From the NCBI GenBank assembly GCA_947179485.1, contig OX359245.1, positions 1,903,001-1,967,000 on the forward strand: a stretch of 64,000 nt of DNA, in the 5' to 3' direction. The stretch comes from Allacma fusca. Lineage: Eukaryota; Arthropoda; Collembola; Symphypleona; Sminthuridae. Of this stretch, positions 2,576 through 60,654 are shown in pieces. Made by a program: the position numbers and the translations under genes. A model generated the notes under the pieces. The model made no database searches. It saw nothing but the letters and a program-made list of their open reading frames with translations, and had not been told where the DNA came from. The first letter of the stretch is position 1. Every line of letters starts with the position of its first letter.

Positions 2576-3541
2576 TAGGGAAGCTCATGGGGACAGGACC
2601 AACCCGGGTATTTGGGTACAGGAACAGGTCCAAAATGGGTACAGTTTAAAAGTTCCCAATTGTAACAGGAACGAAACAGGTACTTTTATTTTGTACCCAC
2701 AAACCTGTGACCACAATCACAAACAGGTACAGGAACGAAAGTCGTTCCTGTTTGTGTGTTCCCAATAGGAACAGGTCCATACTGTGGAATGACCCATATT
2801 TAAACGTGTGGACCCGGGTACTTTGACGTTTTTGAACTTCGATCATTTCCAAAGCACCAATGAACGCTCGAAATGAATTTTGAGCATGGACTTGTAAAAT
2901 TGTACATGCATGGGTATGAATGTCATTTACCATGCTCGTTAGTTGCTTTAAAACAAATTACTTCATTGGACTTATTTTGCATTAAAGTAATTACTTCAGT
3001 TTAGACGTGGATTCCGCAAACTGATGGATTGATAGTGACCACAATAGTGATACAGAAGAAAATGTGAACTCAAAACAAAGGTCTGACGTGTACAGTCATT
3101 ATAAATATGACAAGAAAAATCTAAAATTCCAGTGCAATTACTGCAGGTAGGTTTTATTGTAATTTAAAAGTAGTAATAAAATTTAATTATTTATTTCCAC
3201 TGGAAACATTCGGAAGCATTTACGAAGATAAACTTAGCAGCAAAAAAGCTTAAAAGTAAAGTTGCTTTTCCGCCCTTAAAAGTAATAAACAAGTTATGGT
3301 ACAATAATTTTTTTATAGTACAAAAATATGCAGGAACAATGATATTATTTATTGAAAAAGCAAAAACAAATAGTAAACAACGTTTAGCTTAAATTCATAT
3401 GTTTAAACTAAAGTACCCGGGGACGAACCCGGGTACTTGCATAACTTTTGGGAATGGGTACACGTTTTGGGTACTTTTCAGGAACGGGTACAATTTTAGG
3501 AACAGGTACAAGATTTTGGATGTGTGTGGCAAAAATCCCTA
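2576..3541 (+). mobile_element. hAT-like deletion derivative, copy 1
   Basis: It begins TAGGGAAGCTCATGGGGAC. The next ~950 bp (to 3526) is an almost exact inverted copy of 6057-7007. The homology stops at 3526 and this copy then ends on a short AAAAATCCCTA, so it has lost the segment present at 5919-6056 in the other copy. It contains a remnant BED zinc-finger exon (3025-3146). I could not find an 8-bp target duplication at its outer ends, unlike copy 2. The predicted 95-aa frame inside it (2646-2933, minus) recurs identically in copy 2 and is part of the element, not a host gene. Confidence 0.7.
3025..3146 (+). pseudogene. Remnant BED-type zinc finger exon of a hAT transposase
   Basis: One frame reads an acidic stretch (SDHNSDTEENVNSKQRSD) followed by VYSHYKYDKKNLKFQCNYCR. 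This has the spacing of the start of a BED zinc finger (aromatic residues, then CxxC), as found at the N-terminus of hAT transposases. The frame runs directly into GTAGGT, a good splice donor, so the His half would lie in a following exon that is now missing. No in-frame start codon was found. It is the only coding trace left in this element. Confidence 0.6.
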
Positions 3542-5918: not shown

Positions 5919-7007
5919 TAGGGAAGCGCAAAGGTACAAAAACTTGGTGCCTGTTCCTGTTCCTGAACACGTACCTATAAATACAGGTACAAAATTTATG
6001 TTCCTGTACCTATGCTAAAACTTTGCAGGTACGAATTTTCCGTTCATGTACCTGTTCACACATCCAAAATCTTGTACCTGTTCCTAAAATTGTACCCGTT
6101 CCTGAAAAGTACCCAAAACGTGTACCCATTCCCAAAAGTTATGCAAGTACCCGGGTTCGTCCCCGGGTACTTTAGTTTAAACATATGAATTTAAGCTAAA
6201 CGTTGTTTACTATTTGTTTTTGCTTTTTCAATAAATAATATCATTGTTCCTGCATATTTTTGTACTATAAAAAAATTATTGTACCATAACTTGTTTATTA
6301 CTTTTAAGGGCGGAAAAGCAACTTTACTTTTAAGCTTTTTTGCTGCTAAGTTTATCTTCGTAAATGCTTCCGAATGTTTCCAGTGGAAATAAATAATTAA
6401 ATTTTATTACTACTTTTAAATTACAATAAAACCTACCTGCAGTAATTGCACTGGAATTTTAGATTTTTCTTGTCATATTTATAATGACTGTACACGTCAG
6501 ACCTTTGTTTTGAGTTCACATTTTCTTCTGTATCACTATTGTGGTCACTATCAATCCATCAGTTTGCGGAATCCACGTCTAAACTGAAGTAATTACTTTA
6601 ATGCAAAATAAGTCCAATGAAGTAATTTGTTTTAAAGCAACTAACGAGCATGGTAAATGACATTCATACCCATGCATGTACAATTTTACAAGTCCATGCT
6701 CAAAATTCATTTCGAGCGTTCATTGGTGCTTTGGAAATGATCGAAGTTCAAAAACGTCAAAGTACCCGGGTCCACACGTTTAAATATGGGTCATTCCACA
6801 GTATGGACCTGTTCCTATTGGGAACACACAAACAGGAACGACTTTCGTTCCTGTACCTGTTTGTGATTGTGGTCACAGGTTTGTGGGTACAAAATAAAAG
6901 TACCTGTTTCGTTCCTGTTACAATTGGGAACTTTTAAACTGTACCCATTTTGGACCTGTTCCTGTACCCAAATACCCGGGTTGGTCCTGTTCCCATGAGC
7001 TTCCCTA
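5919..7007 (-). mobile_element. hAT-like element, copy 2, with 8-bp target duplication
   Basis: The ends are TAGGGAAGCGCAAAGG on the left and the inverted CATGAGCTTCCCTA on the right. The octamer CACTGATG flanks it perfectly (5911-5918 and 7008-7015), as expected for hAT insertion. Length is 1,089 bp. Bases 6057-7007 are the inverted copy of copy 1, including the BED zinc-finger exon remnant mirrored at 6437-6558. The sequence is full of GGTACAGGAACAGG-type subterminal repeats. No transposase core is present, so it is non-autonomous. Confidence 0.85.
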
Positions 7008-9237: not shown

Positions 9238-10578
9238 TTGATTTCCTTTGCAAATTTAATTGCCAATTTGGTTTCCACTATGAAAGCTCTGGGGAAACGA
9301 GGCCATATGAGTAATCCTCAGCTGCTTAAGGAACTTCTTGTCAAGTTACCATTTCAGCTTCAGTTTGCATGGTGTGAAAAGGCAAAAGCGATGTCAGATG
9401 ACCAGACTCTGGTGAACTTCTCAAGTTGGATGATTGATGTTGCCATGACAGCTAGTTTGTTGCCAATTCATAACATCACCGACATTGGCAAGTCAAATAA
9501 TTCAGAAAATAGTAATAAAAATGATAAGAATAAAAAGCACATTTTGAATATTTCTGAAAAAAGTGACAATAGTTGTCCAAAATGCCACAGCAATGAACAT
9601 AGTTTGAGTAACTGTTATAAGTTTCAAGCTGATGGTAGTAAATTCCGATGGGATTTTGTAATGAAACAAAAGCTATGTGTTTGTTGTTTGAAGTATGGGC
9701 ATATAGGTACAAAATGTCCAGAAAAAAAGGTATGTGGTATCGATGATTGCAATAAGTATCATAATCAGCAGTTGCACAGAAAGTCAAATACGTCAGTAGC
9801 AACTGTCAAAGGGGAAGAGACTCCCGGAGGTAATTATTGTGGTCATGTTGGAAATGGAATGAAGGAGACATTGCTGAGAATACTACCGGTCATACTTTCT
9901 GGTCCGAAAGGAAAATTATGTACATACGTCATTCTTGATGATGGGTCAACGCTTACTTTGGTCGATGCTGGAGTTGCAAGTCAACTTGGACTGGAGGGGA
10001 AAGAAGATCCATTATGTATTCATTGGACCAATAACGTTTCCAGAGAAGAAGAGCATTCACGGAGAGTTTCGTTGAAGATATGCGGTAGGAAAATGGAGAA
10101 CAAAACTTTCACTTTGACTGACGTAAGAACAGTAAACAATTTGTCATTGCCTACTCATACCGTCAATATGGAGGATTTAAAGAAACAGTATAGCTATCTA
10201 ATGGATGTACCGTATGAGTCCGTAAAAAATGTGAGACCAATGCCTTTGTTGGGGCAAGATAACATTATCTTATCAGCAGCAAGGAAATTCATCAGTGGAG
10301 TGTGGGGAAGTCCAGTTGCCAGTTTGACTCCATTAGGCTGGGTTGTCCATGGGAACATACCAATGAAGAGTAGGACTGATCGAGTTTTGATGCTGCATAG
10401 TTTGGATGGGGATCAAGAACTAATTCAGCTGGTAAAAGAGTCTTACTCTACAAAATGTTTCGGAGTAAAAGTTTCTGAGTTATGTTCAAGGTCTAAGGAT
10501 GACGATGCTGCAATGAAGATTATGGAAGCTACAACTAGACGAGTTGGGGATAGGTTCCAGACGGGCCTACTTTGGTGA
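9238..10578 (+). pseudogene. BEL/Pao gag C-terminus and aspartic protease
   Basis: It opens with ETLISFANLIANL, the continuation of the gag core after the TAG at 9220. Next come zinc-finger-like clusters (CPKCHSNEHSLSNC, CVCCLKYGHIGTKC) at about 9570-9730. The retroviral-type aspartic protease follows, with ILDDGSTLTLVD as active site at about 9930-9965. This is the usual BEL/Pao variant (DDGS in place of D-S/T-G). The later part is the linker to reverse transcriptase. A TGA at 10576-10578, right after GLLW, ends the frame, and the same frame reopens immediately into RT. Confidence 0.88.
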
Positions 10579-10587
10579 CAAAAGGAT

Positions 10588-12111
10588 ATGGTATTTCCGT
10601 CAAGTAAGAATACAGCACTAAGAAGATTGCAATGTGTGGAACGGAGAATGGACAAAGATCCCGTTTTTGCAAACACCTACTGTATGAAGGTACAAGAGTT
10701 CTTGGACAAAGGTTATGCTGAACTGATGACGAGTGATAGCGCTGATGTGATTGGTCCAAGAACGTGGTACATACCTCACTTTGGAGTTACCAACCCCAAT
10801 AAGCCTGGGAAAGTACGATTAGTTTTTGATGCTGCGGCGACAACGGACGGTGTAAGTCTCAATAGTTGTCTGTATAAAGGTCCGGACTTATTAAACCCTC
10901 TTCCCGCAGTACTATGGCGATTCCGTCGTCACTCTATAGCGGCTGTCGGTGATATAAAGGAAATGTTTCCTCAAATAATTATCTGTCCTGAAGACCAAGA
11001 CTCACAGAGGTTTCTATGGCGGGGTATGGAGAGGAATGAGCCACCAAAAACTTACAAAATGGTGCGAATGATTTTTGGGGCAGCATCATCACCCTCCTCA
11101 GCTAATTATGTGAAGAATGTAAATGCTGCAGAATTTCAAGACCAGTATCCACGAGTATACAAAGCAATTAAAGAAGATACATATATGGATGATCATCTTG
11201 ACGGGGGAAGCAGCGAAGATGATCTTCGCAGTCATATTCAAAATATCATTCATGTTTATAAACAGGCTGGTTTTATAATATGCAATTGGTCATGTAGTTC
11301 CCGAGAAGTGCTGGAATCAATTCCAGACGAGCTACGAGCAGTTGGTAATGTAGAGCTCAACAAAGGGCAGGTTTTGCCGACTGAAAGAGTTTTAGGACTT
11401 TATTGGAATGCTGAATCTGATGAGTTCTGTTTTAATTTCAAATGTCACAAGGTGTCTGCGGATGAAGTAAATGGAACTAAGGTCCCTACGAAGCGTGAAG
11501 TATTGAAATTACTCATGTCTCTTTTTGATCCTTTGGGATTTCTGGCCCATTATCTAATAAAGGGGAAGATTTTGTTCCACCAAATCTGGAGGACTGGACT
11601 TGGCTGGGATGATTTTTTGTCTGAAACGTTGATGCAGAGCTGGGAATTATGGCTGGCAGTATTGGCACAATCTAGTTCTATGAAGATACCACGTTGTTAC
11701 CACCCAAAATTGTCAGAAGCTTCGGAGGTTCAGTTGCATATTTTCGTTGATGCTAGTGAGGAGGCCTTTGCTGCGGTATGTTACCTGAGAATTGAAGTGG
11801 AAGATGTAGTTGAAGTAAGTTTTGTTGCAGCTAAAACGAAGGTGGCGCCACTAAAACCGTTATCTATTCCACGAATGGAGCTACAAGCTGCTGTATTGGG
11901 AGTAAGATTGGCTAAGAAGGTCAAGGAGGAGTTGCAGTGGAAGCTCAGAGAGATTGTTTACTGGCCAGATTCTCGAACAGTACTATGCTGGATTAAATGT
12001 GACTCACGAAAGTATAAACAATTCGTAGCTCATCGAGTTGGAGAGATATTGGAATCTTCCGATGAAAACGACTGGTGGTGGGTTCCGACAGAGGATAATG
12101 TTAACGGATAA
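10588..12111 (+). pseudogene. BEL/Pao reverse transcriptase and RNase H
   Basis: The RT palm is clear: VRLVFDAAA at about 10810, GDIKEMFPQI at about 10950, and the catalytic YMDDHLDG with YMDD at 11182-11193. The Pao-type segment (FDPLGFLAHYLIKGK) follows at about 11525. RNase H starts at HIFVDASEEAFAAV (about 11740), with the further conserved block SIPRMELQAA. The frame ends at a TAA (12109) inside the region that in BEL elements reads NVADDATR. Here it is degraded by several stops, and the integrase continues in another frame. Confidence 0.92.
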
Positions 12112-12157
12112 CGGATTAGAGGATAGTGTTTAACGTTCTCAGCCATGTTGTACAGTA

Positions 12158-13777
12158 GTGGAAGGTTGTAGATGGTTACATGGGCCTAACTTTCTTAAGT
12201 CAAATCCAGCAGAATGGCCAAAAGAAGCTATAGTATTAACAGAAGATACACAGGAAGAAAAGAAGCGTGAGTTTATGTTTTTAGTCGGCACTATTGGTAC
12301 AGTTACTGAATTCGATTTACTACCTGACATATCACACTTTTCAAAATGGTTACGAGTGGTGAGATCAACTGCGTGGGTAAAAGTTCTGGGACGGTATTGG
12401 CTTGACTGTCGTATTTCAAATCAAATTAGTAGTGAAAATATGATTTGGGCTGAGAAAATTTGGTGGCGTAAAGTCCAGCAAGATAGCTACTGGGATGAAG
12501 TGCAGACGTTGCAACATGGGTTGATGGTGGAAAGAAGTAGTAAACTTTGGAAGCTAGACATTTTTCTGGATGATGACGGTATCATGCGGATGAAAGGACG
12601 TACCATTGAAGCTTCGTCAGAAGTAGCTGAAGCAGTTAATCCAGTTGTACTGGATCGTAAGCATCCTTACACGATATTAATGATGATGCATTATCATTGT
12701 ATAGCTGGACATCAGGGTCGGGAGACTGTTGCAAATAATTTGCGACAAAAGTTCTATATCCCTGCAGCACGTTCCGCTGTGAGAAAAATATTTGCTTCCT
12801 GTTTGTGGTGCCGTATAAGGAAAGTAACACCTGTGATTCCAAAAATGGCGGATTTACCACCTGAGCGAGTTACTTCGTATGGTCGACCGTTTATGAAGAC
12901 GGGTATGGATTTTTTTGGTCCGGTATATGTCAAAGTTGGCCGAAAGAAAGAGAAAAGGTATGGCGTACTATTTACTTGTCTGGCTGTTCGAGCTGTACAC
13001 TTGGAGGTGGCAGCAAAATTGACAACAGATTCTGCAATCAACGCGATTAGACGTTTTATCGATAGACGTGGAACACCAGATGATTTGTACACTGACAATG
13101 GGAGGAATATGCTAGGTGCTGAAAAAGAGCTGCGAGAAGCAATGAAACAAATGGAGAAGTGTAAAATGTTGGATTTTGCTGCTGGTAAACATTTCAAATG
13201 ACATTTCATTCCACCCGTGACTCCACATATGGGGGGAAGTTGGGAACGAATGGTTCGATCTGTTAAATCGGCGTTATATTCAACCTTGACGGGAGCTGTA
13301 ATTGAAGAAGTTCTGGCAACACTATTCACCGAAGCGGAAGCAGTGGTTAACAGTCGGCCTTTAACACATGTTCCTGTGGATGGCGCTGATGGAGATTGCC
13401 TGACACCCAATCATTTCTTGATTGGGCCCAGTAATATTATTCTTCCTGCAGGTGAATTTTCTGACGAAAGCAAACGTTTGAGGATTCAGTGGAAGACTTG
13501 TCAGAAATGGGCTGATAATTTCTGGAAAAAATGGTTGCATGATTATTTACCAACGTTAGCTCAGCGTACGAAGCGGCATAAAGAGGCGTCTCCTTTGAAA
13601 GTTGGAAATCTGGTAGTTATTGTTGATAGTGCTCAACCTAGGATGACGTGGACGAGAGGAATCATTGTTCGGGTCTTCCCTGGTAGAGATGGACAAGTTC
13701 GGGTAGCAGACGTGCGGACCTCTAGGGGCACTTACAGGAGACCAGTTAATAAGTTGTGTTTATTAGAAGTAAATTAA
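12158..13777 (+). pseudogene. BEL/Pao integrase with DUF5641-type C-terminus
   Basis: It contains the integrase zinc-binding region (HYHCIAGHQGRETV through CLWCRIRK, about 12690-12815). The catalytic core has its first Asp in GMDFFGP (about 12905), its second in YTDNGRN (about 13095) and the Glu in GGSWERMVRS (about 13235). A TGA at 13199-13201 interrupts it exactly where the conserved sequence has Trp (FK-stop-HFIPP), so TGG to TGA is the likely change. The C-terminal portion (WTRGIIVRVFPGRDG) is the DUF5641-type tail. The frame ends 34 bp before the 3' LTR. Confidence 0.9.
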
Positions 13778-47940: not shown

Positions 47941-49287
47941 CATTCATTGCTGTGCTCTTCCGCGAACCTCATGCACTTGCGTTTGTTCACTCTGACTCTC
48001 GTTTTCCACTTCCACAGGCTGGGTAGCCTTACAAATAAATGTCATGAAGATGAGAAGGTCATATATGAGGTGACGTCAAGCCGACTCTTGCAATTCACTC
48101 CCTAAATGTGAACATGCACGTTCAAATAATTAAAACGAGCCAAAGTGAAGGAATGACAAACAAGAACATTTGGGGCTTATTCTAGAGTGAGAACAATAGT
48201 TGAGCGTCAGCAAGGAAATAAAAATTGTCAAAATTCTAAAGGATAAGAAGTCTCCCCTGGTAAAAATACGGATTTTCCTACTCAAATTTCGTTTGTCACC
48301 GGAATTTTGAAATGAAGAATTTCTGTACAGACAATTATTAATAATACATAATTTGAAGTTAGAATACTGCAAGTACTCGATTTGTCCCCGAATCTTCGCA
48401 TCAGTTGGTCAATTTCAAATAGATTTCCAAATCAAGTTTACAATCAAATGAATTCCCAGGGTTGCACGATTGAAAATGCCCTGGGTGTTTGATTATTTTG
48501 GGAATTGTTTGCCCAATTCGAGCACTTTGGGCATATTCAACATTATAAAGGCATTTTCTCCCTGATTTTTTCAATATGAGTTTTAACTATCTACTAATTT
48601 TGCAAACTAAATCACAAAGCAGTCTGTTTAAATAGACAGTTTTATGAAACAGTTCAGTATTTATTATATATTATTGAAAGATACCGTTCGCATGCATGAT
48701 GACGTACAGTTACAGATGTTATATTACTTCGAGAGCAAACATGATTGTAAAGCTTGATTGCTCCACCACTTGTCTAAAAACTATGGTCTAAACAACAATA
48801 AAAAAGATACAGGAATCCGTGAGGTGGAGCAAAGTCATGGATTTTGTTTTAGAATTTTTTCTTACGAAATGTAAAATTTTGCGCAGAGATTACAATTTAA
48901 CTTACATTTTAAATCTTCACTCATGTTTATGATATGATTCCTTTATGTTCTACTCAACTAAAATCTTACAATTCCATTTAAATTTCCAAATTGTATTTTC
49001 AAAGCGAGAGAATTTAATAATTTTTTAGCATGGTACTCTTGTCCTGGGTTATAGGAAAACAACGGTTTTAAGGAACCACGTATACTGACAAGGTCCCATT
49101 TTTCAGGTCAATTCCCAAGGATTGTCTTTACGTGCAACGTCTTTTATTTAATTGTGCTTGTCGGTACGTCAGCACAATTTTTCTTCAACTAATATTTATG
49201 AATCTTTCCCTAATTTTAATGGGATTCTGAGATAACGTTTTAAAGTGAAAAATAAATTAAAAGCCTAAAAGTTTTAAATCGACCCAT
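47941..49287. other. No gene seen
   Basis: AT-rich sequence up to the Ty3/gypsy LTR. No exon or element boundary was recognised. Confidence 0.45.
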
Positions 49288-49802
49288 TGAAAGGTTAGTG
49301 TTTTAGGTAAATGTTTATGAGTCAAATTATGAGAAAAACCTTTAACACCTATTATCCTGAACCTTTGTTGGGATGTAATTCAGAGATACAGAGAGCCCTT
49401 TCACAAACTCTCTAATTATGAGCACTATAAATGAGGGGTACTGCCTAAGTGGCACGAGTGTATGTTACGTATAATAAGATGGGGTAATCTTTAAGTAATG
49501 TTCGATTAAATAACTATTTTATATTTATTCTTGAAAATATATTTCACGAAGACCTTTCCCTTAGGAATATTACAAGTAAGGATCAGTCTCTAAAATTAAC
49601 ACACTGAAATATTTCTAACCAGAGAGGCTAGTTCCTATCCCTTGCCCTATTCAATCCAGAATGTCCTCTCTACACACATCCATCCTCTCATCTCTCATCT
49701 ATTTACATCTTCCAGAATTAAAGATATTCAAATGTGGATGTGGAGAGTTCTTCCTAAGGAAAACGTCTCTTAAGATTAACATACTATTTTAACATCCTTA
49801 CA
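49288..49802 (-). repeat. Ty3/gypsy 3' LTR
   Basis: In element sense it begins TGTAAGGATG and ends CCTTTCA. A purine-rich run (GTAGGGGATG in sense) lies just upstream as the plus-strand primer. It contains two of the element's palindromes (cores 49559-49565 and 49753-49759). Confidence 0.93.
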
Positions 49803-50074
49803 CATCCCCTACGTACGGAAAATTTCGACCTCGAAATTTAAAACAATTAGATTCCATAAGGGATATGAAGGGAATTATAGATTTGAAATTAATACAAACA
49901 TAAGTATTAAAACATGTAAACTATTGTTCTGGTCTCAATTTGAAACAAAATTGAGTACCAGGAAAAACAAACAAAAACAAAAAAAACAAAAATATTCTTA
50001 CATTCTCTCAAAAAAAAAATATAATAAGGTAATTCATTTGAGCAAATACAATTTGTAATGTATTCTAAGGAAAA

Positions 50075-50992
50075 TCAATAATGTCCGAAAATGATACGGA
50101 CGGGACACTCCATATACTTATGTCCAGGTTTGTAGCAAGCCTTGCATTGATAGTTGTATCTTGAACAATTGAACATTGAATGTCCTGTTTGCCTGCATTG
50201 AGCGCAAAGTTTTGGCAGATGCGTAATAACATCCGGATCCATATCAAATATGAAAGGATAATCGTCTGGATACGGTATTGGAATGGTTTCCTTAAGGAAT
50301 CTGTTTTTCATCTCCCAAATACAAGGTGGAAATAGAGCCAGAAGATCTTTTTGGAAGTTCCAAATGTGATGTGGGGTACCTGAAATATGTACTAAACGTT
50401 CTCTCATATTAAACTGCCACAAGTCCACAGAACATTCAGCTAAAAACTTTCCCAATTCCTTTTTGGTAGTTCCCTGAGGTCCCATGACAATGCCAATGCA
50501 TTCCACCGGAACCCTTATGGTGGTAGAAACTTGATCCTCTTCTTGCATCACTGTCGGCTTCATATAATAAGTAGCGTCCGACGGGAATCTTATATACGGA
50601 GCGGTTTCCACTCTGTGTGAATCCATGTGATGACTAAGGAATTGTAAGGTTGGAGTAGGTAGGTTACACACATGACATCTGGCCTGATCATTCACACTGT
50701 GAATAGAGAGTGGCATCTCCGGTCTCCAAGGATGAAGTTTGAGATCTTGTGGAATTTCCGGGGAAACCTTGACGGTCATAGGCGGTGTGTTCGAAGAAGT
50801 GCGCGACGTACCTGGTTCTTCCTTTATTTCCGGAGGGAATTTCATGTTTTTGTATCGCTGGAGAGTATCTATAACTCGATCCAGTTCCAGGGCATCTTCT
50901 TCTTGTTTTGTAAACAAATACTCCATGGATTTTGTTGCTTGAACCGCTTCGAGTCTAGCATTGAAAAGGTCTACCGTGTATTTAACATCCAT
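50075..50992 (-). CDS. KH-domain plus CCHC zinc-knuckle protein in the env position of the element
   Basis: It is predicted to bind RNA or DNA. The chosen start is MDVKYTVDLF (50992), just after a good acceptor (GATATTCCTTAG, exon from 50999). The open frame reaches a further ATG at 51070 with a hydrophobic lead that may be noncoding. From that choice (~305 aa): an acidic helical N-terminus, then a C2H2-like finger (CHVC ... HHMDSH) around residue 110. A type I KH domain follows around 160-225, with IRVPVECIGIVMGPQGTTKK containing the GxxG loop as GPQG, then VHISGTPHHIWNF. Two CCHC knuckles (CAQCRQTGHSMFNC, CKACYKPGHKYMEC) end it. The KH is closest in style to MEX-3 KH2, and KH plus CCHC recalls SF1/BBP. 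It probably needs a spliced subgenomic RNA. It is intact. Confidence 0.85.
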   Translation of the reverse strand: MDVKYTVDLFNARLEAVQATKSMEYLFTKQEEDALELDRVIDTLQRYKNMKFPPEIKEEPGTSRTSSNTPPMTVKVSPEIPQDLKLHPWRPEMPLSIHSVNDQARCHVCNLPTPTLQFLSHHMDSHRVETAPYIRFPSDATYYMKPTVMQEEDQVSTTIRVPVECIGIVMGPQGTTKKELGKFLAECSVDLWQFNMRERLVHISGTPHHIWNFQKDLLALFPPCIWEMKNRFLKETIPIPYPDDYPFIFDMDPDVITHLPKLCAQCRQTGHSMFNCSRYNYQCKACYKPGHKYMECPVRIIFGHY

Positions 50993-51092
50993 TCCGATAC
51001 TAAGGAATATCAATAGAAAGACATGATTAACAAACATGATCCTCGTATTTACTTTTCCAATGGTACACATGTATAGTTACTTGAACATATGT

Positions 51093-51574
51093 ATACATAT
51101 GTAATCAGATATGTATTCATAAGAAGTTATTTTTATTTTCTTGGCACAATGTAATAAACGCACTCGGTAGAGTTTGAGTCAATTTATATTCAGGGTACTA
51201 AAACCGGGCACATCGTCGAATTCGACGGTTGTATTTGTAGTGTTAGTGTTACTTACGAAGAGATCATTTTCTCAAATATTTTTGAGTTTGTTGGAAATCC
51301 ACGATATGCCAGATTACAGTCACCCAATGACATAAAAGTCTGTAATAAAAGAAAAATAATTTGGGTATTAATATATATATTCACATATATAGATCTGGCA
51401 CTGTACATTCGATTTATCATACCAGAAGTTCACTGATAAGTTATTCCTAAGGAATAATGTTAATAATTTGTATGAAAATTAAATAAGGCAATCACTGTAA
51501 TACACAAATGAAGTAAAGATCGGCGTGGGTCACTAAAAAAAATTATGGCGAAGACCACGCTGAACTTTTGTATT
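51093..51574. other. Spacer between pol and the KH-CCHC gene
   Basis: AT-rich, noncoding on the element strand. It contains the 17-base perfect palindrome TTATTCCTAAGGAATAA at 51441-51457, the longest of the element's recurrent motif. Confidence 0.6.
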
Positions 51575-54500
51575 TTAATCTTTATATGAGAAGGACGGAG
51601 GCTTTCTGGCAACAAGTCTTTTTGGACGAGATTGTACCTGGGAGGGGTCAAACCTCGTGGCTTGTTTAAATAATTCCTGAGATACTGAAGACGCTGAAAG
51701 ACGTCGCTTGTTTCCTGAGGAAACATTATCAACTGGAAATGCCTCAAGTGAATCTACAAATACCTCCTCAGATAATTGGACGGGGGCAATTACTGGAGGA
51801 TTTGTACGTCCTGGTATATCAAATGGGAAATTATCGGGAACACTTTGAGTTCGAATACTTTTGGGCTTTATAAGTTTCCGTATTTTGGAAGCCGGAGGAT
51901 GTGAGTCCTCTATATTATTAGTTTTTCCCTGAGGGATTTTAACAGCTTCCAAAGAAAAAATTTCAATGTTAGTTTTGGTCTTACCCTTAAAAGTCCGAAA
52001 ATTCGTAGGATTAACTATCTTATTACGAATGGAGTCCTGAATTTGAGAAATATTTATGTGAGAACTTGAAGTCACTGTAGGAAAAACTTTATGAATGACC
52101 TTTTTACACTTAAGTTTTTGAACTCTTGGAGATTTATCTCTGACAAAAGGAATTTCCTTCTGTAACGCACTGATACGTGATGATTTCCGAAGCTTCACAG
52201 GAGTGTCTTGTCGTACTGGTATACAAGGAAGTACTGACGGAGATACTTGTGTGTGTGCACTTGGTCCGTGTATATTGATGAGAGAGTGAGTGAGTGAGTG
52301 AGAGACGGCCTCTGGGACACGCCCTGTTGCCAACTCATTACTCTCCTCCCGCACGTCTGTATGTTCAGAGATACACGCCGTGTGCGTCTGTGACGTGGCA
52401 ACACGGTGTGGATCGACGACGGGTCGTTTCCTCTCTCTCCTTATACACTTAAAGAATTTATTCTCCCACTTAGGAAAATAAATGAGTGTCTGTACACTCT
52501 CAAACTTTTCCTTATAAGCACACAAGATAGCGATTTCTGCCTGTTCTTTTCGCTCAATATTTTCCTTGAAGAGTTTAATTATTTTAGGTATGATCATGTC
52601 GTTAAACACATTATAAAATTCACACAATGTATAATTCAACTGTTCCTGAGGAACCGATTGTGTATCACTGACATTATTGAGTTCAATCTTTACAGGATTT
52701 AAAGTGTCGTCTGTTGCTACTAATAGTGATAAGGAACTTATAATATCCTCATGATTTTGTTCCAGAATATCATTTTGAATGTCTATAGGAATAGTATTAG
52801 TAGTTATTGAGAGGGTTTCATTTCGCCCCTGTAATGTGTTTAGATGGGGAGAAAATAATAATTCATGTGATGAATGTGATTTTGCGGAGGGAGTCGTGAC
52901 GCAACTATGGAAAGATTCATGAAGTGAATTAGAAATACTCAATCTACCTAGACTAGTTTGATGAAGATATTCATTGAGATAATTGTTCATGGGATTGTCC
53001 TCCTCAAAAACGTCAGAGTCACTAAGAACATTCTCAAAACGTGAAGAGTCTGGATTTTGTATCGCGGTTATATCACTGTCTACAGATTTAATAGACGGTG
53101 ATTTGGTATTTGGAGAATCAGAGGATTTAGTACTTTGATTTCTATAGTCTGTGCCAAAAAATAATTCTCCTGGAATAAAAGTTTCAAGTTGTCGGATTTC
53201 AGTAGAAACGGGCTGAAAATTTCCGAACATGTCGGTTGTAGCATGGTTATTATTAGTCACTACATTCGTAAAGTTTGCCATCTGAAACGTAGGACTATAT
53301 TCCAGATGCATATGTGAGTCATTATTGGGAATGTCATTGTCAACAATATTAGTTTCACTTTGAGTATCAACATTTAAATTGTCATTTTCCTGAGGGAAAG
53401 TATTTTCATTATTGACATAATATTCATTCATAATGTTAGAGTTCGGATTTAGATTCAAAGTTACATTTATTATTGGACTTATATTATTTATTTCTTCTTG
53501 CACTGGTTCAGCAGAACTTATTATTTCATGCGATGAGACCGTGTCAAGAGGATTAAGAACTCTTCTGGTTCTTTTTGTAGCGGGTAACAAATTAAATTCT
53601 GTAATTGTCCGCTTACTACGTGTATTACGGAACGGGCCTGAATTTATTCTCGGAACCGATTCCGGTTGATGAGTAGCACTTTGCGCATAAGAGTTACTCT
53701 GAAATTCCATCGTGGGAATTATATTTGGAGGAGTTAAATGCTCCTCTGGAATAATACTTAAGTTATTTTCCTGAGTATAATGTCTTTGATTTGAACGATT
53801 ATTATAAGTATTTGAATTAGACACAATTCTGGAAGAAGAAGGTCTATGTCGGATGTTATTTAGATTGTACTGGCGAGAAGTACTAGGCTCACCAAGTGTA
53901 CTCATGTTAGAAGAATAATAAGAATTAGAATTCATACTTCTGGTGCGCATACTGTGTGAACGGTACCTTTCATTATCAGTATGGCTGTGATGTGTAGAGT
54001 TAGTGGGATGCGATGTTGGATTTGGAAGGAAAGAGTTGATCAGGCTATTTCCTCGTGTGCCATCAAAGTAACTACCACTACTACTATCGGAATTCAATGA
54101 TTCACTATATGTAAAATTCCTGTTGGAATTATTATAAGTTCTGGGTTGGTAAAACGGAGTTTGAAACACTGAGCCTTGGCAATTCCACATACTGTCATTT
54201 TCACTAAAGTCAATTTCTGAGGGAAAAGTTAAAGGTTGATATGACACGCACCAAGGTTCGGGACTAATGTAAGGTTTCATATTTTCGACATGAACATGCC
54301 GATTGCTTTGTCCTTGAGATGTAATTAGCGGTTTTACTTCGAAAGAAGAATTACCCAAGATTTTAACTATTTCATATGGAGATGACCATTTTGGCCCAAG
54401 TTTTGGTCCATCTTGTATTTTCAACACAATTAAATCACCAACTTTATAATTATGCGCGGTCTTATTAGCATTGTAAAGCTTATCACGATTATCTTGTTGG

Positions 54501-56750
54501 GTCTTGGCGAATTCAACAGCTTTATCCGTCGCCAGCGACAGATCTTGTTGAATTTCCTCTGGAGATTTAGTGTTGTCTGGACATAATACTGGAGTCAATA
54601 AGTCAAATTTCGTGATTGGATCACGACCATGGAATAAATAATATGGAGAGTAATTCGTGCCTTGTTTAACGTGGAAGTTATGGCTACGCACAGCTAAGGG
54701 TAATAATATGTCCCATTTTGAAAAGTCTTTTTCTATATATTTCCTGAGGAAACTTTTCAGAGTACGATTTTGACGTTCCACTAACCCGTTAGATTGCGGG
54801 CTATTTGGCATAACAACGATGTGTTTTATTCCATTAGATTTCAAATAGTCAGTAAAGTCTTTACCCGTAAAATGAGTACCACCGTCCGTGACAATTTCAC
54901 GCGGACAATGATGCACTGACACTATTGCATTATTTAAGAGTCTAACTGAGTCATTAGCTGTAGCGGTTCTGCTGGGTAAAGCAAATACATAACGTGTGGT
55001 ATAGTCTATCATAACAAGTGCATACTTGTTACCTCGGCTTGTCGTATCAAGAGGGCCGATATAGTCCAAAGCTACTCTTGAAAGTGCTTGGGACGGCGGA
55101 GGCAAAGTCTTACGTTGCCCCACGGCAGTCGCATTACGTGGATTATGAATTTGACAGAGTTCACAAGACATTAGAAACTTTTGAACATCACGGAACATAT
55201 TCTTCCAATAATACCGCATATGTAAAACTGAATAAGTCTTATAAATCGAAGCGTGACCTGTTGTAGGGTCTTCATGTACAAGTTTTAATATTGTCGCACG
55301 CATGTCTTTAGGAATAACTAATTTCCACGGATTAGGAGTATTACCTTTATCCAGTCTATAAAGTAATCCATGTATTAAAGCATAATTAGTTCCAAAAATA
55401 TGTGGCGGGTCACTAATATGATCACCACTCTTATTTAAAGTCATAATAATGTTCCTGAGGAACTCATCTTCATATTGCTTAGTCTTGAATAAATGAATAT
55501 TACCACCAACTGTAGCATTTATGATCATGTCTTCGGCACCTATTTCCTCTTCAGTCGAGTCGACTAAAGTTGTCCGAAGTCTGCGGATGACGGCTCGAGA
55601 TAGGCAGTCCACATGTGCCATTTTTGAACCTTTGACATGTTCAATGGTATGTGGCTGGGCTGCTAAAATCATGGCCCATCTTGCAATGCGGTTATGAGGA
55701 TCCTTGATGCTCTGGAGGTACTGCAGGCTGTGATGGTCCGTTCGTATATGTATATGGCGGCCATACACATATTGCCTAAACTTCTCCAGGCCCCAAACAA
55801 TTGCAAGAGCTTCTCGTTCTCGGGCGTCCCACTTCTTCTCAGCTTCCGTGAGGTTTCTGGAAGCATAATGGATGGGATGAAGCTTCTTTCCATCTAAGGA
55901 TTGGTGTAAAATAGCACCTATGGCATAAGAGCTTGCATCTGTATAAAGATATAAATCAGCCTCAGTATTGAAAAATTTCAATACTGGTGCAGTCATTAAT
56001 GCCTGTTTCAACTGCCGAAAGGCAGTATCGCATTCTTCAGACCATTTAAATGGTACTCCCTTCTTGCGGAGATCATTTAAAGGCCGTGCGATTGATGCGT
56101 AGTCCTTGATAAAATGACGGTACCATTCCGTCTTGCCTAGGAATCTTCTGAGGGAAGCCAAGTCCGTGCAGGGTTCCATATTAATGATGGGTTCCAGTTT
56201 GAGGGGGATCGGTGCCTTGCCATCGGCACTGATCCGGAGTCCCAAAAACTCTATTTCCTGGAAGCCGAACTTGCACTTCTTCAGTTTGAACATAAGTCCA
56301 AACTGTTTTGCCCGCTGGAGAACCAATACAAAGCGCCTCAGAAATTCTTCAAAGGTTCCCGCATACACCAGTACATCATCGATGTACACCAGTACTATGG
56401 TGTACCGGAGAACTCCAAGAATATCATCCATCATATTCTGGAATTCTCCCGGGGAATTGATGAATCCGAATGGAAGTCGGTTCATACAGAACTTTCCATC
56501 CGGTGTGGTGAAAGCCATCTTCAGCCTGGATTTGGCGTCCAACATCCGCTGAAGAAATCCCTGAATGGCATCTAGAGAGATGAACCATTTCGCCCCATGA
56601 AGCCGGTCAAATTGATCCTGGGGGATGGGAAGAGGATACGTATTCTTGACAACGTGCTTGTTGAAACGTCTCAAGTCAAGCACATACCTCTTGGTCCCAT
56701 CAGCCTTCATCACTAAAAGAACTGGATTGTTCCATGGGGAATCGCAAGGG
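51575..56750 (-). pseudogene. Ty3/gypsy RT, RNase H and integrase with a ~890-residue tail
   Basis: RT starts at DSPWNNPVLLVMKADGTKRY. The catalytic YIDD is at 56375-56386. RNase H is marked by LYLYTDASSYAIGAIL and IHIRTDHHSLQYL. The integrase has an HHCC module (HEDPTTGHASIYKTY ... CELCQ). Its catalytic residues lie in VALDYIGPL, IVTDGGTHF and NGLVERQNRT. A GPY/F-like block (GPKWSSPYEIVKIL) follows. After that the same frame runs for ~890 more residues, rich in Asn and Ser, with short basic patches (VKLRKSSRI, SRPKRLVARKP) and no domain I know. The frame is offset from protease by one base in a C run (56748-56751), so this copy cannot make a full Pol. The first ~36 codons of the open frame above 56750 are out of register and not part of RT. 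Confidence 0.9.
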
Positions 56751-58097
56751 GACAATGCCTTGCTTGATGTGGAGTTGGACCAACTCCCGTAACTCCTGCT
56801 GCTCGGTGAAAGAGAGCCTGTATTGTGGAGTGTACACCGGTTTGGAGTCCCCTGTGTCAATGGTCACATACTTGTAGTTGACACAGCCAAACTCGGTGTC
56901 ATCCTTGGCGAAACAACTCCTGTAGTTGTTGATGATGTTCAACAATTCGGTCTTCTGGTCCTCCCTTAACGTTGGACCGAAATTGCAATCCTTCGATTGC
57001 AATGGGTCAAGAGTCTTTGTAGGTGATTGCCGTGTCTCCGGACAATCACCCGCTCCGACCTCGACACCATTGAATTGGTCGAAGGTAGCAAACCGGCGGA
57101 GGGTTTGAAGCCTTGTTGGTCTTCTGGATGGATTCCAGACCAACGTGTAGGAATCTCCATCTTCCATTGGACAGACAATGTCCCCAAAAAGAAGATCCTT
57201 CCTCAGAGTCCGATTTGGGGAAATGAGGACATTCCCCGTGAAGCTGTCGGTTGACTTCACATCAACACGCGTCCATGATCTCGGTAGAAGCTCATATGGA
57301 CGGGTGGTTCGGACCGTATTCATCCTTCGGATTTTGGGATGATTGGAAGTTGAAGAACTTGATGTAGAATGTGTAGAATTGTTGGAAGGTAAGTTGGAGT
57401 TTCCTGAGGAAATTGTTGAATTGTTGTCATCATTGTTGAGATTGTTGTCAATATTGATTTCTGCAAACATTGTTGCTGTAAGTGTGCCATGATTAATAAT
57501 GGCTCGATGCTTGCGTAAGAAATCACCACCAAGTAATAGTAAAGTATTTGACTTGGGGATAACTGCGAATTGATGCGAATGTAAAATGTCATTAATGTAA
57601 TAATGTATGGTAGCAGTCTTATTGTAGATAATTGTAGAGTCAGATACTGTTTGTGTTATGGATTTGTCATGATGTAAATGGAGTTTAATCCCTTGCGGAT
57701 TATTCTGTTGAATATTGTAGACGCATGACGGAGAAATTGTGGAAATACCAGCTCCATCATCGCACAATGCCTCAACTGTGAAGTTATTTCCAAAAATTTT
57801 CAAATGGAAACGGACGTCTGTGTCTGGGAATTGTTCACGTTGAGTAGTAATGAAGTCATTATTCAGAACAGAGGAAGTGTCTGATAATACCACTGAATCA
57901 GGGGTAACTTGAGAAAGAACATCTTCTTGATGCTGAGTCTTCATAACTTTGATTTTATTCATTCCTTTGGAATGTTGAGGTAAAGTTGTATTAATTGTTG
58001 TAGAATGTGTAAATTGTGAATTGCCATTAGTAGAATTATTTACAGTTGTTAAACCATCAGTCAGATTTCCCCGCGGAATCTGACTAATTAGTTTAAA
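56700..58097 (-). CDS. Ty3/gypsy protease and pol N-terminus, entered by -1 frameshift
   Basis: The frame is open from the slippery site at the end of gag down to a stop at 56700. It contains a retroviral-type aspartic protease: EALCDDGAGISTISP as active site (about 57740-57780; the usual D-T/S-G is D-D-G here), then LLLLGGDFLRKHRAI as the flap/ALIG-like end. A linker leads to the first RT residues (ELVQLHIKQGIVP). It then diverges out of frame because of the extra base at 56748-56751. There is an ATG at 57962, but the coding frame extends upstream of it to 58097 without a stop, as expected for Gag-Pol fusion. Confidence 0.85.
   Translation of the reverse strand, partial: FKLISQIPRGNLTDGLTTVNNSTNGNSQFTHSTTINTTLPQHSKGMNKIKVMKTQHQEDVLSQVTPDSVVLSDTSSVLNNDFITTQREQFPDTDVRFHLKIFGNNFTVEALCDDGAGISTISPSCVYNIQQNNPQGIKLHLHHDKSITQTVSDSTIIYNKTATIHYYINDILHSHQFAVIPKSNTLLLLGGDFLRKHRAIINHGTLTATMFAEINIDNNLNNDDNNSTISSGNSNLPSNNSTHSTSSSSTSNHPKIRRMNTVRTTRPYELLPRSWTRVDVKSTDSFTGNVLISPNRTLRKDLLFGDIVCPMEDGDSYTLVWNPSRRPTRLQTLRRFATFDQFNGVEVGAGDCPETRQSPTKTLDPLQSKDCNFGPTLREDQKTELLNIINNYRSCFAKDDTEFGCVNYKYVTIDTGDSKPVYTPQYRLSFTEQQELRELVQLHIKQGIVPLRFPMEQSSSFSDEG
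58060..58097 (-). promoter_or_regulatory. -1 programmed ribosomal frameshift signal at the gag/pol junction
   Basis: On the minus strand the gag frame ends AAT TTA AAC TAA. T TTA AAC (58091-58097) is a classic X XXY YYZ slippery heptamer. A six-base spacer follows (58085-58090), containing the gag stop. Then comes a stem-loop (58060-58084): GTCAGATT pairs with AATCTGAC, and CC with GG across one bulged A, closed by a GCGG loop. Slipping by -1 reads TTT AAA CTA ATT and enters the protease frame with no stop. Confidence 0.85.
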
Positions 58098-59704
58098 TTA
58101 TCTTGATTGTTGATTTGAGGTTGTGTTTGTCCTGTGGGACGTTGATTAGTAGAATTGGATACTAATTGTAAGAAATTGTTTAATAAATTTCCATTGTTGG
58201 GTCCATTGTTGGGTTGTCCATTGTTGCGGTAGCTACTGTTATAGTAGGTACCATTGTTGTTGTAATTGTTATAATTATCGTTGCCTCGATAATTATGGCC
58301 ACGGAAATTTCCTCTGGAATTTCCTCGAAATCCTGAATTATGAAATGTTTTTCCATAATTGGCATTGTTGCTATGATAATTGCCTCTTCCATTGTTGGGA
58401 TTATTGGGATGTCCCCTATTGCCCCTATTGGATTGTTGTCCACGACCAGAATTGTTGCCAGTATTGTTGTTGTCTTGTTTGTAACGACTGTAACATTTTG
58501 ACGCAATATGCCCCGGTTTGGAACATATTTGGCAACTCTGAGTCGATTGTTTGAAGTTTTTAACTTTAGTAGAAGTATTGTCATCTTTTGTGCTTTCAGC
58601 AGTTTTTGCCAAAAGATCTCCCTTAGGGAGTACGGGTGCAATAGTAGGAGTAATTGTAGCAGAGGTTGATGAAGGTTGTGAAATCAAAGTCTTTTCACCT
58701 TCAAGAATAGTTTCAAGTCGTGCCGAAAAAATCGAAAAATTAGCTTTATGTGGTTCTTGTATGAATCGGCTAATTGAGTACGGCAACTTGCGGATCATTC
58801 GGTTAACTTTAGTCTTTATAGTCATTTTACCATCAATTTGTGACAGTAAGGAATTCAATTTGGAAATGAATTTAGAGACAGGCTTATTAGAGTCAAATTT
58901 GTAAAGTTCAAGTTTAGCCTCAGCTCTATCAGCTTTATGTTCATTTTTGAAATGTTCAATAAATTCATGAAAGAATTCATCCAAAATTGTGTAAGGTCTT
59001 TTTCGAGAATTACGCCATTCCCTTAGGGAAAATTCAACACTTTCAAACCATGAAACTACCTCGAGAGATTTTGAATGTTTAAAGAACTGATGTAATAATG
59101 GTATGAGGTAACTAGGCTCTAGACCTAATTCTTGAGCTTCCGCATTGAATGTATCAGCGTATAGTTCGGCATCAGATGAGATTTCATAAATAATAATGCG
59201 ATCTTTAAATACCTTAAATAGTCGCTTTTGTCGATCCAAGTGTGCCAGGGAAGTCTGTTGATCCTGGTCCTTGGGTTCATCCTCCTCGTCAGAAGATGAG
59301 GCATGAATGCGCCGATATGCTCGGGATGTGGAACATTTCCGACCAGTTTGGAAATTTTTGAAAGCCTCCTCTAAAGTCTGGATTTTCTTTTTCCAAGCCT
59401 CCAATGTTTCCTGAGTCTCCTTAGGAATTATGGGTTGATGATTGAGACAGGAATAGTCCATAGTAGATGTTCGTGAAAAACCCGGAAAAGCTGCTCCGGA
59501 TCCGAGTCCTGTATTCTGAGTGGATGGTTGTTTAGGAATAAACGTATCATGAATTGTGGCAAAACTGTATGTACCACCAGCTAATTTATAATTATTAATT
59601 TGTTCCTCAATTTCAAGTCTTTTCTTTTCCAAAGTAACTTCACAAGATTGTGTCTGTTGCACATCCTGAGGGGAATTTTCAGTGTCATTATCTGAGTCAC
59701 CCAT
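58088..59704 (-). CDS. gag: Ty3/gypsy Gag
   Basis: This is a 538-aa particle protein that would package the element RNA in the cytoplasm. It starts MGDSDNDTENS with an acidic, disordered N-terminus. A capsid-like helical region lies at about residues 170-330 (SLEVVSWFESVEFSLREW; DEFFHEFIEHFKNEHKADRA; KLPYSISRFIQEP), of the retrotransposon gag type. One CCHC knuckle, CQICSKPGHIASKC, lies near residue 395. The C-terminus is Asn/Gly/Arg-rich (GNNSGRGQQSNRGNRG; NNYNNYNNNGTYYN) and may bind RNA. The frame is intact, ends in TAA at 58088 and overlaps the frameshift signal. The leader to the LTR is ~390 bases. Confidence 0.9.
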   Translation of the reverse strand: MGDSDNDTENSPQDVQQTQSCEVTLEKKRLEIEEQINNYKLAGGTYSFATIHDTFIPKQPSTQNTGLGSGAAFPGFSRTSTMDYSCLNHQPIIPKETQETLEAWKKKIQTLEEAFKNFQTGRKCSTSRAYRRIHASSSDEEDEPKDQDQQTSLAHLDRQKRLFKVFKDRIIIYEISSDAELYADTFNAEAQELGLEPSYLIPLLHQFFKHSKSLEVVSWFESVEFSLREWRNSRKRPYTILDEFFHEFIEHFKNEHKADRAEAKLELYKFDSNKPVSKFISKLNSLLSQIDGKMTIKTKVNRMIRKLPYSISRFIQEPHKANFSIFSARLETILEGEKTLISQPSSTSATITPTIAPVLPKGDLLAKTAESTKDDNTSTKVKNFKQSTQSCQICSKPGHIASKCYSRYKQDNNNTGNNSGRGQQSNRGNRGHPNNPNNGRGNYHSNNANYGKTFHNSGFRGNSRGNFRGHNYRGNDNYNNYNNNGTYYNSSYRNNGQPNNGPNNGNLLNNFLQLVSNSTNQRPTGQTQPQINNQDNLN

Positions 59705-60077
59705 GGTTCACAGCACTAGTCACTATAGGAAATCAATGTATGTTAAATGAAAGTTACTGGAACACTGCCAAATTAAGAATGTCTATCAGTGTGTTAAGTG
59801 CACTTTTATCAGCACAGGGAAGATGAGTATTCTGGATGAGGGAATTTAAGAGTACTGAATACGCGTTTGCGCACTAGAGAAAACTCGTGAGATGTCCACG
59901 CCGAAGATGAGATTAGGGAAGATGCGGCATGACAGATCCAAGATGGATGCTCTCACTATGTACACTATTGTCTTTGTATATAAATGTTAGATTTCCTATG
60001 GAAACGTATCTGGAAATCACTATAATTGTTGTAAAAAAAAAATTCACGCAACAATAAACACTCGGAGATCTTCAGAA

Positions 60078-60090
60078 GCACGCTCCACCA
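60078..60090 (-). other. Primer binding site of the Ty3/gypsy element
   Basis: One base after the 5' LTR the minus strand reads TGGTGGAGCGTGC, complementary to a tRNA 3' end finishing CCA. I could not name the tRNA. Confidence 0.65.
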
Positions 60091-60091
60091 G

Positions 60092-60598
60092 TGAAAGGTT
60101 AGTGTTTTAGGTAAATGTTTATGAGTCAAATTATGAGAAAAACCTTTAACACCTATTATCCTGAACCTTTGTTGGGATGTAATTCAGAGATACAGAGAGC
60201 CCTTTCACAAACTCTCTAATTATGAGCACTATAAATAGCACTAAGTGGCACGAGTGTATGTTACGTATAATAAGATGGGGTAATCTTTAAGTAATGTTCG
60301 ATTAAATAACTATTTTATATTTATTCTTGAAAATATATTTCACGAAGACCTTTCCCTTAGGAATATTACAAGTAAGGATCAGTCTCTAAAATTAACACAC
60401 TGAAATATTTCTAACCAGAGAGGCTAGTTCCTATCCCTTGCCCTATTCAATCCAGAATGTCCTCTCTACACACATCCATCCTCTCATCTCTCATCTATTT
60501 ACATCTTCCAGAATTAAAGATATTCAAATGTGGATGTGGAGAGTTCTTCCTAAGGAAAACGTCTCTTAAGATTAACATACTATTTTAACATCCTTACA
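60092..60598 (-). repeat. Ty3/gypsy 5' LTR
   Basis: It starts TGTAAGGATG and ends CCTTTCA in sense. It matches the other LTR except for an 8-base shorter stretch near 60230. It carries palindrome cores at 60355-60361 and 60549-60555. Confidence 0.93.
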
Positions 60599-60654
60599 CC
60601 ATGAAAATGAACGTGCTAATTGTCCTGCTAAAATAAATTCGTGGGAATTATATG

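What the first reader, a model, noticed from the sequence alone, without database searches (positions are those of the whole stretch)
49288..60598. A short palindrome (TTCCTNAGGAA type) is scattered through the whole Ty3/gypsy element
By eye I find 17 CCTNAGG cores inside this 11.3-kb element. They start at 49559, 49753, 50473, 51446, 51714, 51928, 52645, 53389, 54743, 55454, 57403, 58621, 59021, 59419, 59665, 60355 and 60549. I noticed only two in the rest of the window (about 7294 and 36556). At 35% GC about one would be expected in this length (rough estimate). Most have paired flanks: GTTTCC..GGAAAC, GTTCC..GGAAC, CTCCC..GGGAG, TTCCC..GGGAA, so pairing is kept while bases change. They fall in all three coding frames (FLR at 54741, PQE at 52643, SSG at 57401) and in LTRs and spacers, so protein selection cannot explain them. 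In RNA each can form a small hairpin with a 3-base loop. The tip of the frameshift stem (TTCC-GCGG-GGAA) is of the same kind. They could be repeated RNA packaging or protein-binding sites, or DNA sites for a host factor.
Basis: partly seen in the sequence, partly recalled or inferred. Interest (0 to 1): 0.88.

Follow-up and report, generated by a model that had tools for sequence, protein, structure and literature searches.

The report
Repeated RNA hairpins in springtail retrotransposons
A family of virus-like jumping genes in what is probably a springtail genome carries the same tiny RNA hairpin about a dozen times along its length, kept by evolution but at shifting positions, which looks like a repeated tag by which the element's RNA is recognised.

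Summary
CCTNAGG occurs 17 times in the element (15 without the second LTR copy; 1.5 expected, 0 of 1000 shuffles reach it) and 3 times in the other 52.7 kb. A scan of 5376 inverted word pairs ranks TTCC-N3-GGAA first. Codon-preserving shuffles do not explain it (12 versus 2.07, 0 of 1000). Elsewhere in the host genome, copies with only 72-73% RT-integrase identity keep the enrichment (four copies read: 7, 12, 11 and 14 cores in 7.5-9 kb, 0.75-1.5 expected), mostly at other positions. Two outgroup copies (53-54%) and one family inside the clade lack it. The simplest history is one gain, upkeep of number with turnover of sites, and one loss. The central base on the coding strand is A34 C20 G9 T3 over five families, which a symmetric DNA site would not give. 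Best reading: dispersed RNA hairpins recognised in the element's RNA, most likely by Gag for packaging; that last step is inferred. The element's KH/zinc-knuckle ORF is not the required reader: none is seen in one hairpin-rich copy, and the hairpin-poor family has it.

The parts
49288..60598 (-). Ty3/gypsy element, coded on the minus strand, with target-site duplication CCAT at 49284-49287 and 60599-60602
   Evidence: LTR repeats, flanks read directly, Pfam RT/RNase H/integrase
60092..60598 (-). 5' LTR (507 bp, TG..CA); TATAAA candidate at 60319; hairpin sites 60549 and 60355 lie upstream of it, in probable U3
   Evidence: U3 assignment inferred
49288..49802 (-). 3' LTR (near-identical copy, 8 bp longer by the repeat spacings)
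60081..60090 (-). probable primer binding site TGGTGGAGCG
   Evidence: sequence; tRNA identity not tested
58088..59704 (-). gag ORF, 538 aa, one CCHC knuckle
58050..58097 (-). probable -1 frameshift signal: UUUAAAC (58091-58097) directly before the gag stop, with a strong predicted stem whose tip is TTCC-GCGG-GGAA
56700..57962 (-). protease and start of RT ORF
51575..56860 (-). RT-RNase H-integrase ORF with a long Ser/Asn-rich tail; in another frame than the protease ORF in this copy
50075..51070 (-). accessory ORF: C2H2-like finger (by eye), KH domain, two CCHC knuckles (one weak Pfam match, both by eye); not required for the hairpins
60547..60557 (-). hairpin TTCC-TTA-GGAA (5' LTR; core 60549)
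60352..60363 (-). TTCC-TAAG-GGAA (5' LTR; core 60355)
59665..59671 (-). core CCTCAGG, flanks poorly paired
59419..59425 (-). core CCTAAGG, flanks partly paired
59018..59030 (-). hairpin TTCCC-TAA-GGGAA (core 59021)
58618..58630 (-). hairpin CTCCC-TAA-GGGAG (core 58621; gag residue 360; same place in families E and F as CTTCC-TAA-GGAAG, in D as an unpaired core)
57400..57412 (-). hairpin TTTCC-TCA-GGAAA (core 57403)
55451..55463 (-). hairpin GTTCC-TCA-GGAAC (core 55454)
54740..54752 (-). hairpin TTTCC-TCA-GGAAA (core 54743; pol residue 704; kept in both family B copies)
53386..53399 (-). TTTCC-CTCA-GGAAA (core 53389; pol residue 1156; core also in L079 and L083)
52642..52654 (-). hairpin GTTCC-TCA-GGAAC (core 52645)
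51926..51936 (-). hairpin TCCC-TCA-GGGA (core 51928)
51709..51725 (-). hairpin TGTTTCC-TCA-GGAAACA (core 51714)
51441..51457 (-). hairpin TTATTCC-TTA-GGAATAA (core 51446)
50473..50479 (-). core CCTCAGG with unpaired flanks in the KH GPQG codons; probably coincidental
49751..49761 (-). hairpin TTCC-TTA-GGAA (3' LTR copy; core 49753)
49559..49565 (-). core CCTAAGG (3' LTR copy)
59993..60003 (-). related hairpin TTCC-ATA-GGAA
58309..58319 (-). related hairpin TTCC-AGA-GGAA
57962..57972 (-). related hairpin TTCC-AAA-GGAA
54117..54128 (-). related hairpin TTCC-AACA-GGAA, 6-bp stem

Best explanation
The palindromes are small RNA hairpins (YYCC, a 3- or 4-base loop usually U-N-A, GGRR; middle base mostly A or C, in two families A or G) repeated about 7 to 15 times along the genomic RNA of one Ty3/gypsy clade. 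They act as dispersed cis-acting recognition sites. Most likely the element's own Gag (nucleocapsid) binds them cooperatively, so that full-length RNA is selected and condensed into virus-like particles. Shown: enrichment, upkeep of number with turnover of position, strand asymmetry, and confinement to one clade on a protein tree.
For: 15 sites versus 1.5 expected. TTCC-N3-GGAA ranks first of 5376 inverted pairs, p 1.7e-10. Distances 3 and 4 only. Codon shuffles: 12 versus 2.07 in the window ORFs; 10 versus 2.13, 1.51 and 1.78 in the pol ORFs of L085, L087 and L083, 0 of 1000 each. CCTNAGG is the top gapped 7-mer in the window family and family F and in L085 and L087, and third in families B and E. 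Sense-strand centre A34 C20 G9 T3 of 66 cores in families A, B, E, F and L085: A versus T p 3.5e-6, A+C p 4.4e-6 against fixed background shares of 0.57 and 0.55 (the tally is carried in by hand and includes two LTR duplicates). Changes on both sides that keep pairs: GTTCC..GGAAC versus ATTCC..GGAAT at one place in L071-L074 and at one in L075/L076; CTCCC..GGGAG versus CTTCC..GGAAG at gag 360. Sites mostly lie at different places in different families. The hairpin-bearing families fall in one clade (100/100) that excludes two outgroup elements. In the window family 16 perfect triloop stems with CC-GG inner pairs have mean predicted pairing 0.63 on the sense and 0.45 on the antisense strand, against 0.22 for 57 other 4-bp triloop stems. 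A near-identical copy on contig C8 keeps 16 of the 17 cores, the 17th lying in a deleted part.
Against: No binding data. The loop-flip test on the 16 perfect window triloops shows no strand asymmetry (3828 of 20000 flips reach the value, about 0.19). G-U variants are not commoner than A-C variants. Over all cores of a family, predicted folding differs little between strands (A 0.50/0.41, B 0.50/0.44, E 0.53/0.39, F 0.25/0.19), and is low in F. Flank pairing beyond composition is significant in families A (0.0024) and E (0.014) but not in B (0.68) or F (0.25); the pooled value, 5e-5, mixes families. Codon-shuffle excess is weak in the ORFs of L079 and absent in those of L082. Families F and L085 prefer G over C at the centre, the reverse of the window family. 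Family D (L081; gag, pol and KH ORF present) has 4 versus 1.4 expected, hardly any paired, so the sites are not indispensable. The second B copy, L080, has only 4 versus 1.08. Outgroup L086 has 6 four-base-loop CC-GG stems without the core.
Confidence: 0.45

Rival explanations
1. RNA hairpins read by a host RNA-binding protein that helps export, stabilise, translate or localise the element's RNA.
For: The same strand and hairpin evidence. The element-coded KH protein is not required: no ORF over 90 residues lies in the 1.5 kb read after pol in L087, which has 14 cores, and no KH match is listed there. Two sites per LTR lie upstream of the TATA candidate and would reach the RNA only at its 3' end (inferred).
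Against: No host protein with this specificity was identified. Roquin-type decay hairpins need a Y-R-N loop, which the U-C-A loops of the window family do not meet (rule, loops).
Confidence: 0.22
2. The repeated self-complementary hairpins act through RNA-RNA contacts (kissing or duplex exchange) that condense or dimerise the genomic RNA, with no sequence-specific protein.
For: A short palindrome is proposed to initiate dimerisation of yeast Ty3 RNA (passages of PMC11381356). Each site can pair with its copy on a second RNA.
Against: The constant core and biased central base are not needed for pairing, and no other palindrome family is comparably enriched. Known dimer sites are few and near the 5' end (recalled; Ty3 passages agree).
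Confidence: 0.12
3. Double-stranded DNA sites for a dimeric host or element DNA-binding protein (enhancer, insulator or silencing target).
For: In 10 of the 16 perfect window triloops the outer loop bases are also complementary (loops), as a longer DNA palindrome would have; two sites lie in probable U3; G-U variants are not enriched; the loop-flip test is not significant.
Against: Central base A:T 34:3 on the coding strand. Spread through coding regions. None of the 15 window sites has G-C as first flanking pair, unlike the AP-2 consensus as I recall it.
Confidence: 0.1
4. Chance, codon usage or amino-acid repeats.
For: A few sites fall on conserved peptides (gag LPK, KH GPQG).
Against: Dinucleotide, second-order Markov and synonymous-codon controls in several families. 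Thirty-eight distant Ty3-type contigs hold 0 to 4 cores each.
Confidence: 0.02

Closest known systems
Dispersed RNA packaging signals of RNA viruses and hepatitis B virus (MS2, satellite tobacco necrosis virus, parechovirus)
   Same: Many sites scattered through the genome RNA, described as stem-loops with a shared recognition motif for the hepatitis B case (abstract starts in the listing; abstract and outline of PMC5431903).
Packaging and dimerisation signals of yeast Ty1 and Ty3
   Same: Same superfamily as Ty3; Ty3 packaging depends on UTR or POL sequences and the sequences are said not to be precisely defined (passages of PMC4974528, and PMC11381356).
   Different: The passages describe single 5' structures and one candidate dimer palindrome, not a hairpin repeated through the whole RNA.
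Roquin constitutive decay elements
   Same: Triloop hairpins; in the TNF case pyrimidine-purine upper stem pairs (passages of PMC6294493).
   Different: Loop rule Y-R-N with U preferred at position 3 is not met by U-C-A; those elements sit in 3' UTRs and lower expression.

Membership tests
Ty3/gypsy LTR retrotransposon | LTRs, primer site, RT-RNase H before integrase | tested here: met
   (primer site read by eye)
Dispersed RNA packaging signals | many copies of one stem-loop motif across the genome RNA, above chance | tested here: met
Dispersed RNA packaging signals | motif number kept in relatives although sites move | tested here: met
   exceptions family D and, partly, copy L080
Dispersed RNA packaging signals | sequence-specific binding by the element's capsid/Gag protein | not testable with these tools
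   no binding data
Dispersed RNA packaging signals | loss of sites impairs assembly | not testable with these tools
   needs an experiment
Roquin constitutive decay element | Y-R-N triloop | tested here: not met
   9 of 15 window cores have U-C-A; rule from passages of PMC6294493. U-A-A and U-G-A loops of other families would fit
Decoy 3' splice sites | C or U before the AG | tested here: not met
   A is commonest at that place and U rarest: A34 C20 G9 T3; splice rule recalled
AP-2-type DNA site GCCN3GGC | G-C as first flanking pair | tested here: not met
   0 of 15 window sites; consensus recalled, the term seen only as a count in the listing
Known Rfam RNA families | match to a covariance model | tested here: not met
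   no match up to E 1

The most novel reading that the evidence does not exclude
An LTR retrotransposon clade marks its genomic RNA with a multi-copy hairpin code read by its Gag: a packaging-signal-mediated assembly system in Ty3/gypsy elements, with natural gain and loss among sister families in one genome.
Probability: 0.35. Interest if true: 0.85.

Novelty: new variant of a known kind. Interest (0 to 1): 0.75.

Why it matters
How LTR retrotransposons select their own RNA is poorly defined even in yeast (passages). Here one genome offers sister families with and without a repeated RNA hairpin whose sequence is simple enough to test by binding. The titles and abstract starts listed by my searches (one search listed 12 of 24 papers) show no report of such a repeated hairpin in a retrotransposon; only the open-access library held here was searched.

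Tried and rejected
Element-coded KH/zinc-knuckle protein as the dedicated reader: rejected as a requirement, because L087 (14 cores) has no ORF over 90 residues in the 1.5 kb read after pol, no KH match is listed near it, and family D has the KH ORF but few cores. A structure prediction of that protein failed (mean pLDDT 31.5).

Roquin decay element, decoy splice site and AP-2 site: rejected. Reverse-orientation palindromes GGAA-N1-TTCC (4 versus 0.24) looked enriched but were not among the 20 best pairs printed from the scan, so they were dropped. A tblastn run gave no RT hit in L081, yet its ORF aligns over the whole RT-integrase, so that miss is a search artefact. Viral contigs gave no close relative (the one distant element, L003, has 3 cores in 4.5 kb at 47% GC and no TTCC-N0..7-GGAA). 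A protein search with Gag gave none.
Full report
What was checked. The window holds one full Ty3/gypsy element at 49288-60598 on the minus strand, bounded by a 4-bp duplication CCAT, with near-identical LTRs, so a young insertion. Its proteins are Gag, protease, RT-RNase H-integrase with a long Ser/Asn-rich tail, and a 331-residue accessory protein with a KH domain just above Pfam's cut-off and, by eye, two CCHC knuckles. The accessory protein's only database match is an Allacma fusca (springtail) protein, 43% identical, so the host is probably a springtail; the species is not known to me. All 17 cores exist at the given places.

Is it more than chance? With one LTR counted, 15 cores against 1.5 expected in 1000 dinucleotide shuffles, none reaching 15; with two paired flanking bases on either side, 10 against 0.10. 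To meet the objection that the motif was picked by eye, I scanned every 4-letter word against its reverse complement at 21 distances (5376 tests). TTCC-N3-GGAA came first (11 against 0.67, p 1.7e-10), then TCCT-N1-AGGA, which is the same motif, then TTCC-N4-GGAA (7 against 0.67, p 6.9e-6, borderline after correction). In a gapped 7-mer scan CCT.AGG came first as well. Distances other than 3 and 4 show at most 2 matches each. Shuffling synonymous codons within each ORF gives 2.07 on average where 12 are seen, none of 1000 reaching it. The rest of the window has 3 cores; in its first 49.3 kb TTCC-N3-GGAA occurs 5 times against 1.56 expected (6 of 200 random sequences reach it), two of those five being the arms of one inverted repeat.

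Relatives. The host genome became searchable late. The accessory ORF has 80 matches and the RT-integrase 68 listed matches, 65 candidates scored of 3286. I read about 9 kb each of two family B copies (L079 and L080; RT-integrase 85% and 87% identical), of E (L082, 72%) and D (L081, 73%), 8 kb of F (L083, 73%), and 7.0-8.2 kb of L085 (72%), L087 (73%, close to F), L084 (54%) and L086 (53%) (identities). Cores observed/expected: L079 7/1.03, E 7/1.5, F 12/1.46, L085 11/0.75, L087 14/1.07, D 4/1.43, L084 1/0.89, L086 0/1.46; L080 4/1.08. Three further D loci of 3.9 kb around the KH ORF hold 0 or 1 core each, as do the single loci L064 and L067. A near-identical copy of the window element on contig C8 keeps 16 of 17 cores and has two more. 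Thirty-eight distant Ty3-type contigs, which I take to be stray eukaryotic contigs in prokaryote assemblies, have 0 to 4 cores each. On a protein tree the hairpin-bearing families and D form one clade (100/100) to the exclusion of L084 and L086. D sits next to E and F with modest support (80/80); on that tree loss in D is the shortest history, but if D branched earlier two separate gains would cost the same.

Sites move. Of the window's coding sites mapped onto the other families, few are at the same place: pol 704 is shared with family B, pol 1156 with L079 and L083, gag 360 with E and F (and, unpaired, D); most others are absent there or unalignable. E and F share sites at KH 107, KH 268 and pol 458. 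Where a site is shared, stems can change on both sides: ATTCC..GGAAT in L071/L073 against GTTCC..GGAAC in L072/L074, and again in L076 against L075; CTCCC..GGGAG against CTTCC..GGAAG at gag 360 (there the peptide LPK is also conserved). Enrichment with turnover is what selection on the number of sites would give.

RNA or DNA? A protein that binds a symmetric double-stranded palindrome cannot tell which strand carries the central base. On the coding strand the centre is C9 A4 T2 in the window; over families A, B, E, F and L085 it is A34 C20 G9 T3 of 66 (carrying forward counts; two LTR duplicates are in these counts). Families differ: mostly C in A, A or C in B and E, A or G in F and L085; U is rare in all five. 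Distances of 3 and 4 fit the two smallest usual RNA loops. These favour RNA. Against: the loop-flip test on perfect window triloops alone is not significant, G-U variants are no commoner than A-C variants, flank pairing beyond composition is significant only in A and E, and predicted folding of all cores differs little between strands and is low in F. I put RNA recognition at about 0.8 and DNA at about 0.1.

How it most likely works. The sites run through the whole RNA, coding and not, and are kept in number. That is the anatomy of multi-site recognition of full-length RNA: cooperative binding of many protein copies. Gag is the obvious many-copy RNA binder of such an element, and a CCHC knuckle is present in the Gag of the window, B, D, E and F. 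So I commit to Gag-read packaging hairpins at 0.45, with a host RNA-binding protein next (0.22). The accessory KH protein was attractive but is not needed. That D has a Gag of the same kind but few hairpins is not explained.

Known work. Dispersed packaging sites are described for several viruses (abstract starts listed; PMC5431903 abstract and outline). For Ty1 and Ty3 the packaging sequences are said not to be precisely defined (PMC4974528 passages; PMC11381356 passages). Searches for a repeated hairpin or a KH ORF in LTR elements returned nothing of the kind in the titles and abstract starts shown. Rfam has no match.

Noticed in passing
window 50075-51070 (-): Accessory ORF with C2H2-like finger, KH domain and two CCHC knuckles downstream of pol; other families of the genome have relatives at 33-54% identity, best outside hit Allacma fusca.
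   Followed up: partly
G000, one search list (e.g. C8:40295701, C1:48104852): Ten matches to the accessory ORF end at residue 89, as if one deletion or an exon boundary recurs there; two of these copies at least have pol frames without stops.
   Followed up: no
window 56700-56863: In this copy protease and RT lie in different frames, while several other copies have single open frames of about 2137-2190 residues.
   Followed up: partly
window 58050-58097 (-): Typical -1 frameshift signal: UUUAAAC directly before the gag stop and a predicted 20-pair stem with two single-base bulges that overlaps it, -21.7 kcal/mol.
   Followed up: partly
window 2576-3526 and 6057-7007: 951-bp inverted repeat, 100% complementary, 2530 bp apart; possibly terminal repeats of a DNA transposon.
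   Followed up: no
window 9238-13777: Bel/Pao-like element in pieces, judged by eye from its ORFs.
   Followed up: no
G000 C5:33830895-33860441 and C8:49967187-49976729: 73% and 72% family copies spaced 7.5 to 9.8 kb apart in the same orientation, perhaps tandem elements sharing LTRs.
   Followed up: no
L086 (C12:45036500-45044700): Outgroup element with 6 CC-N4-GG stems but no CCTNAGG core; perhaps a precursor state, perhaps chance.
   Followed up: no
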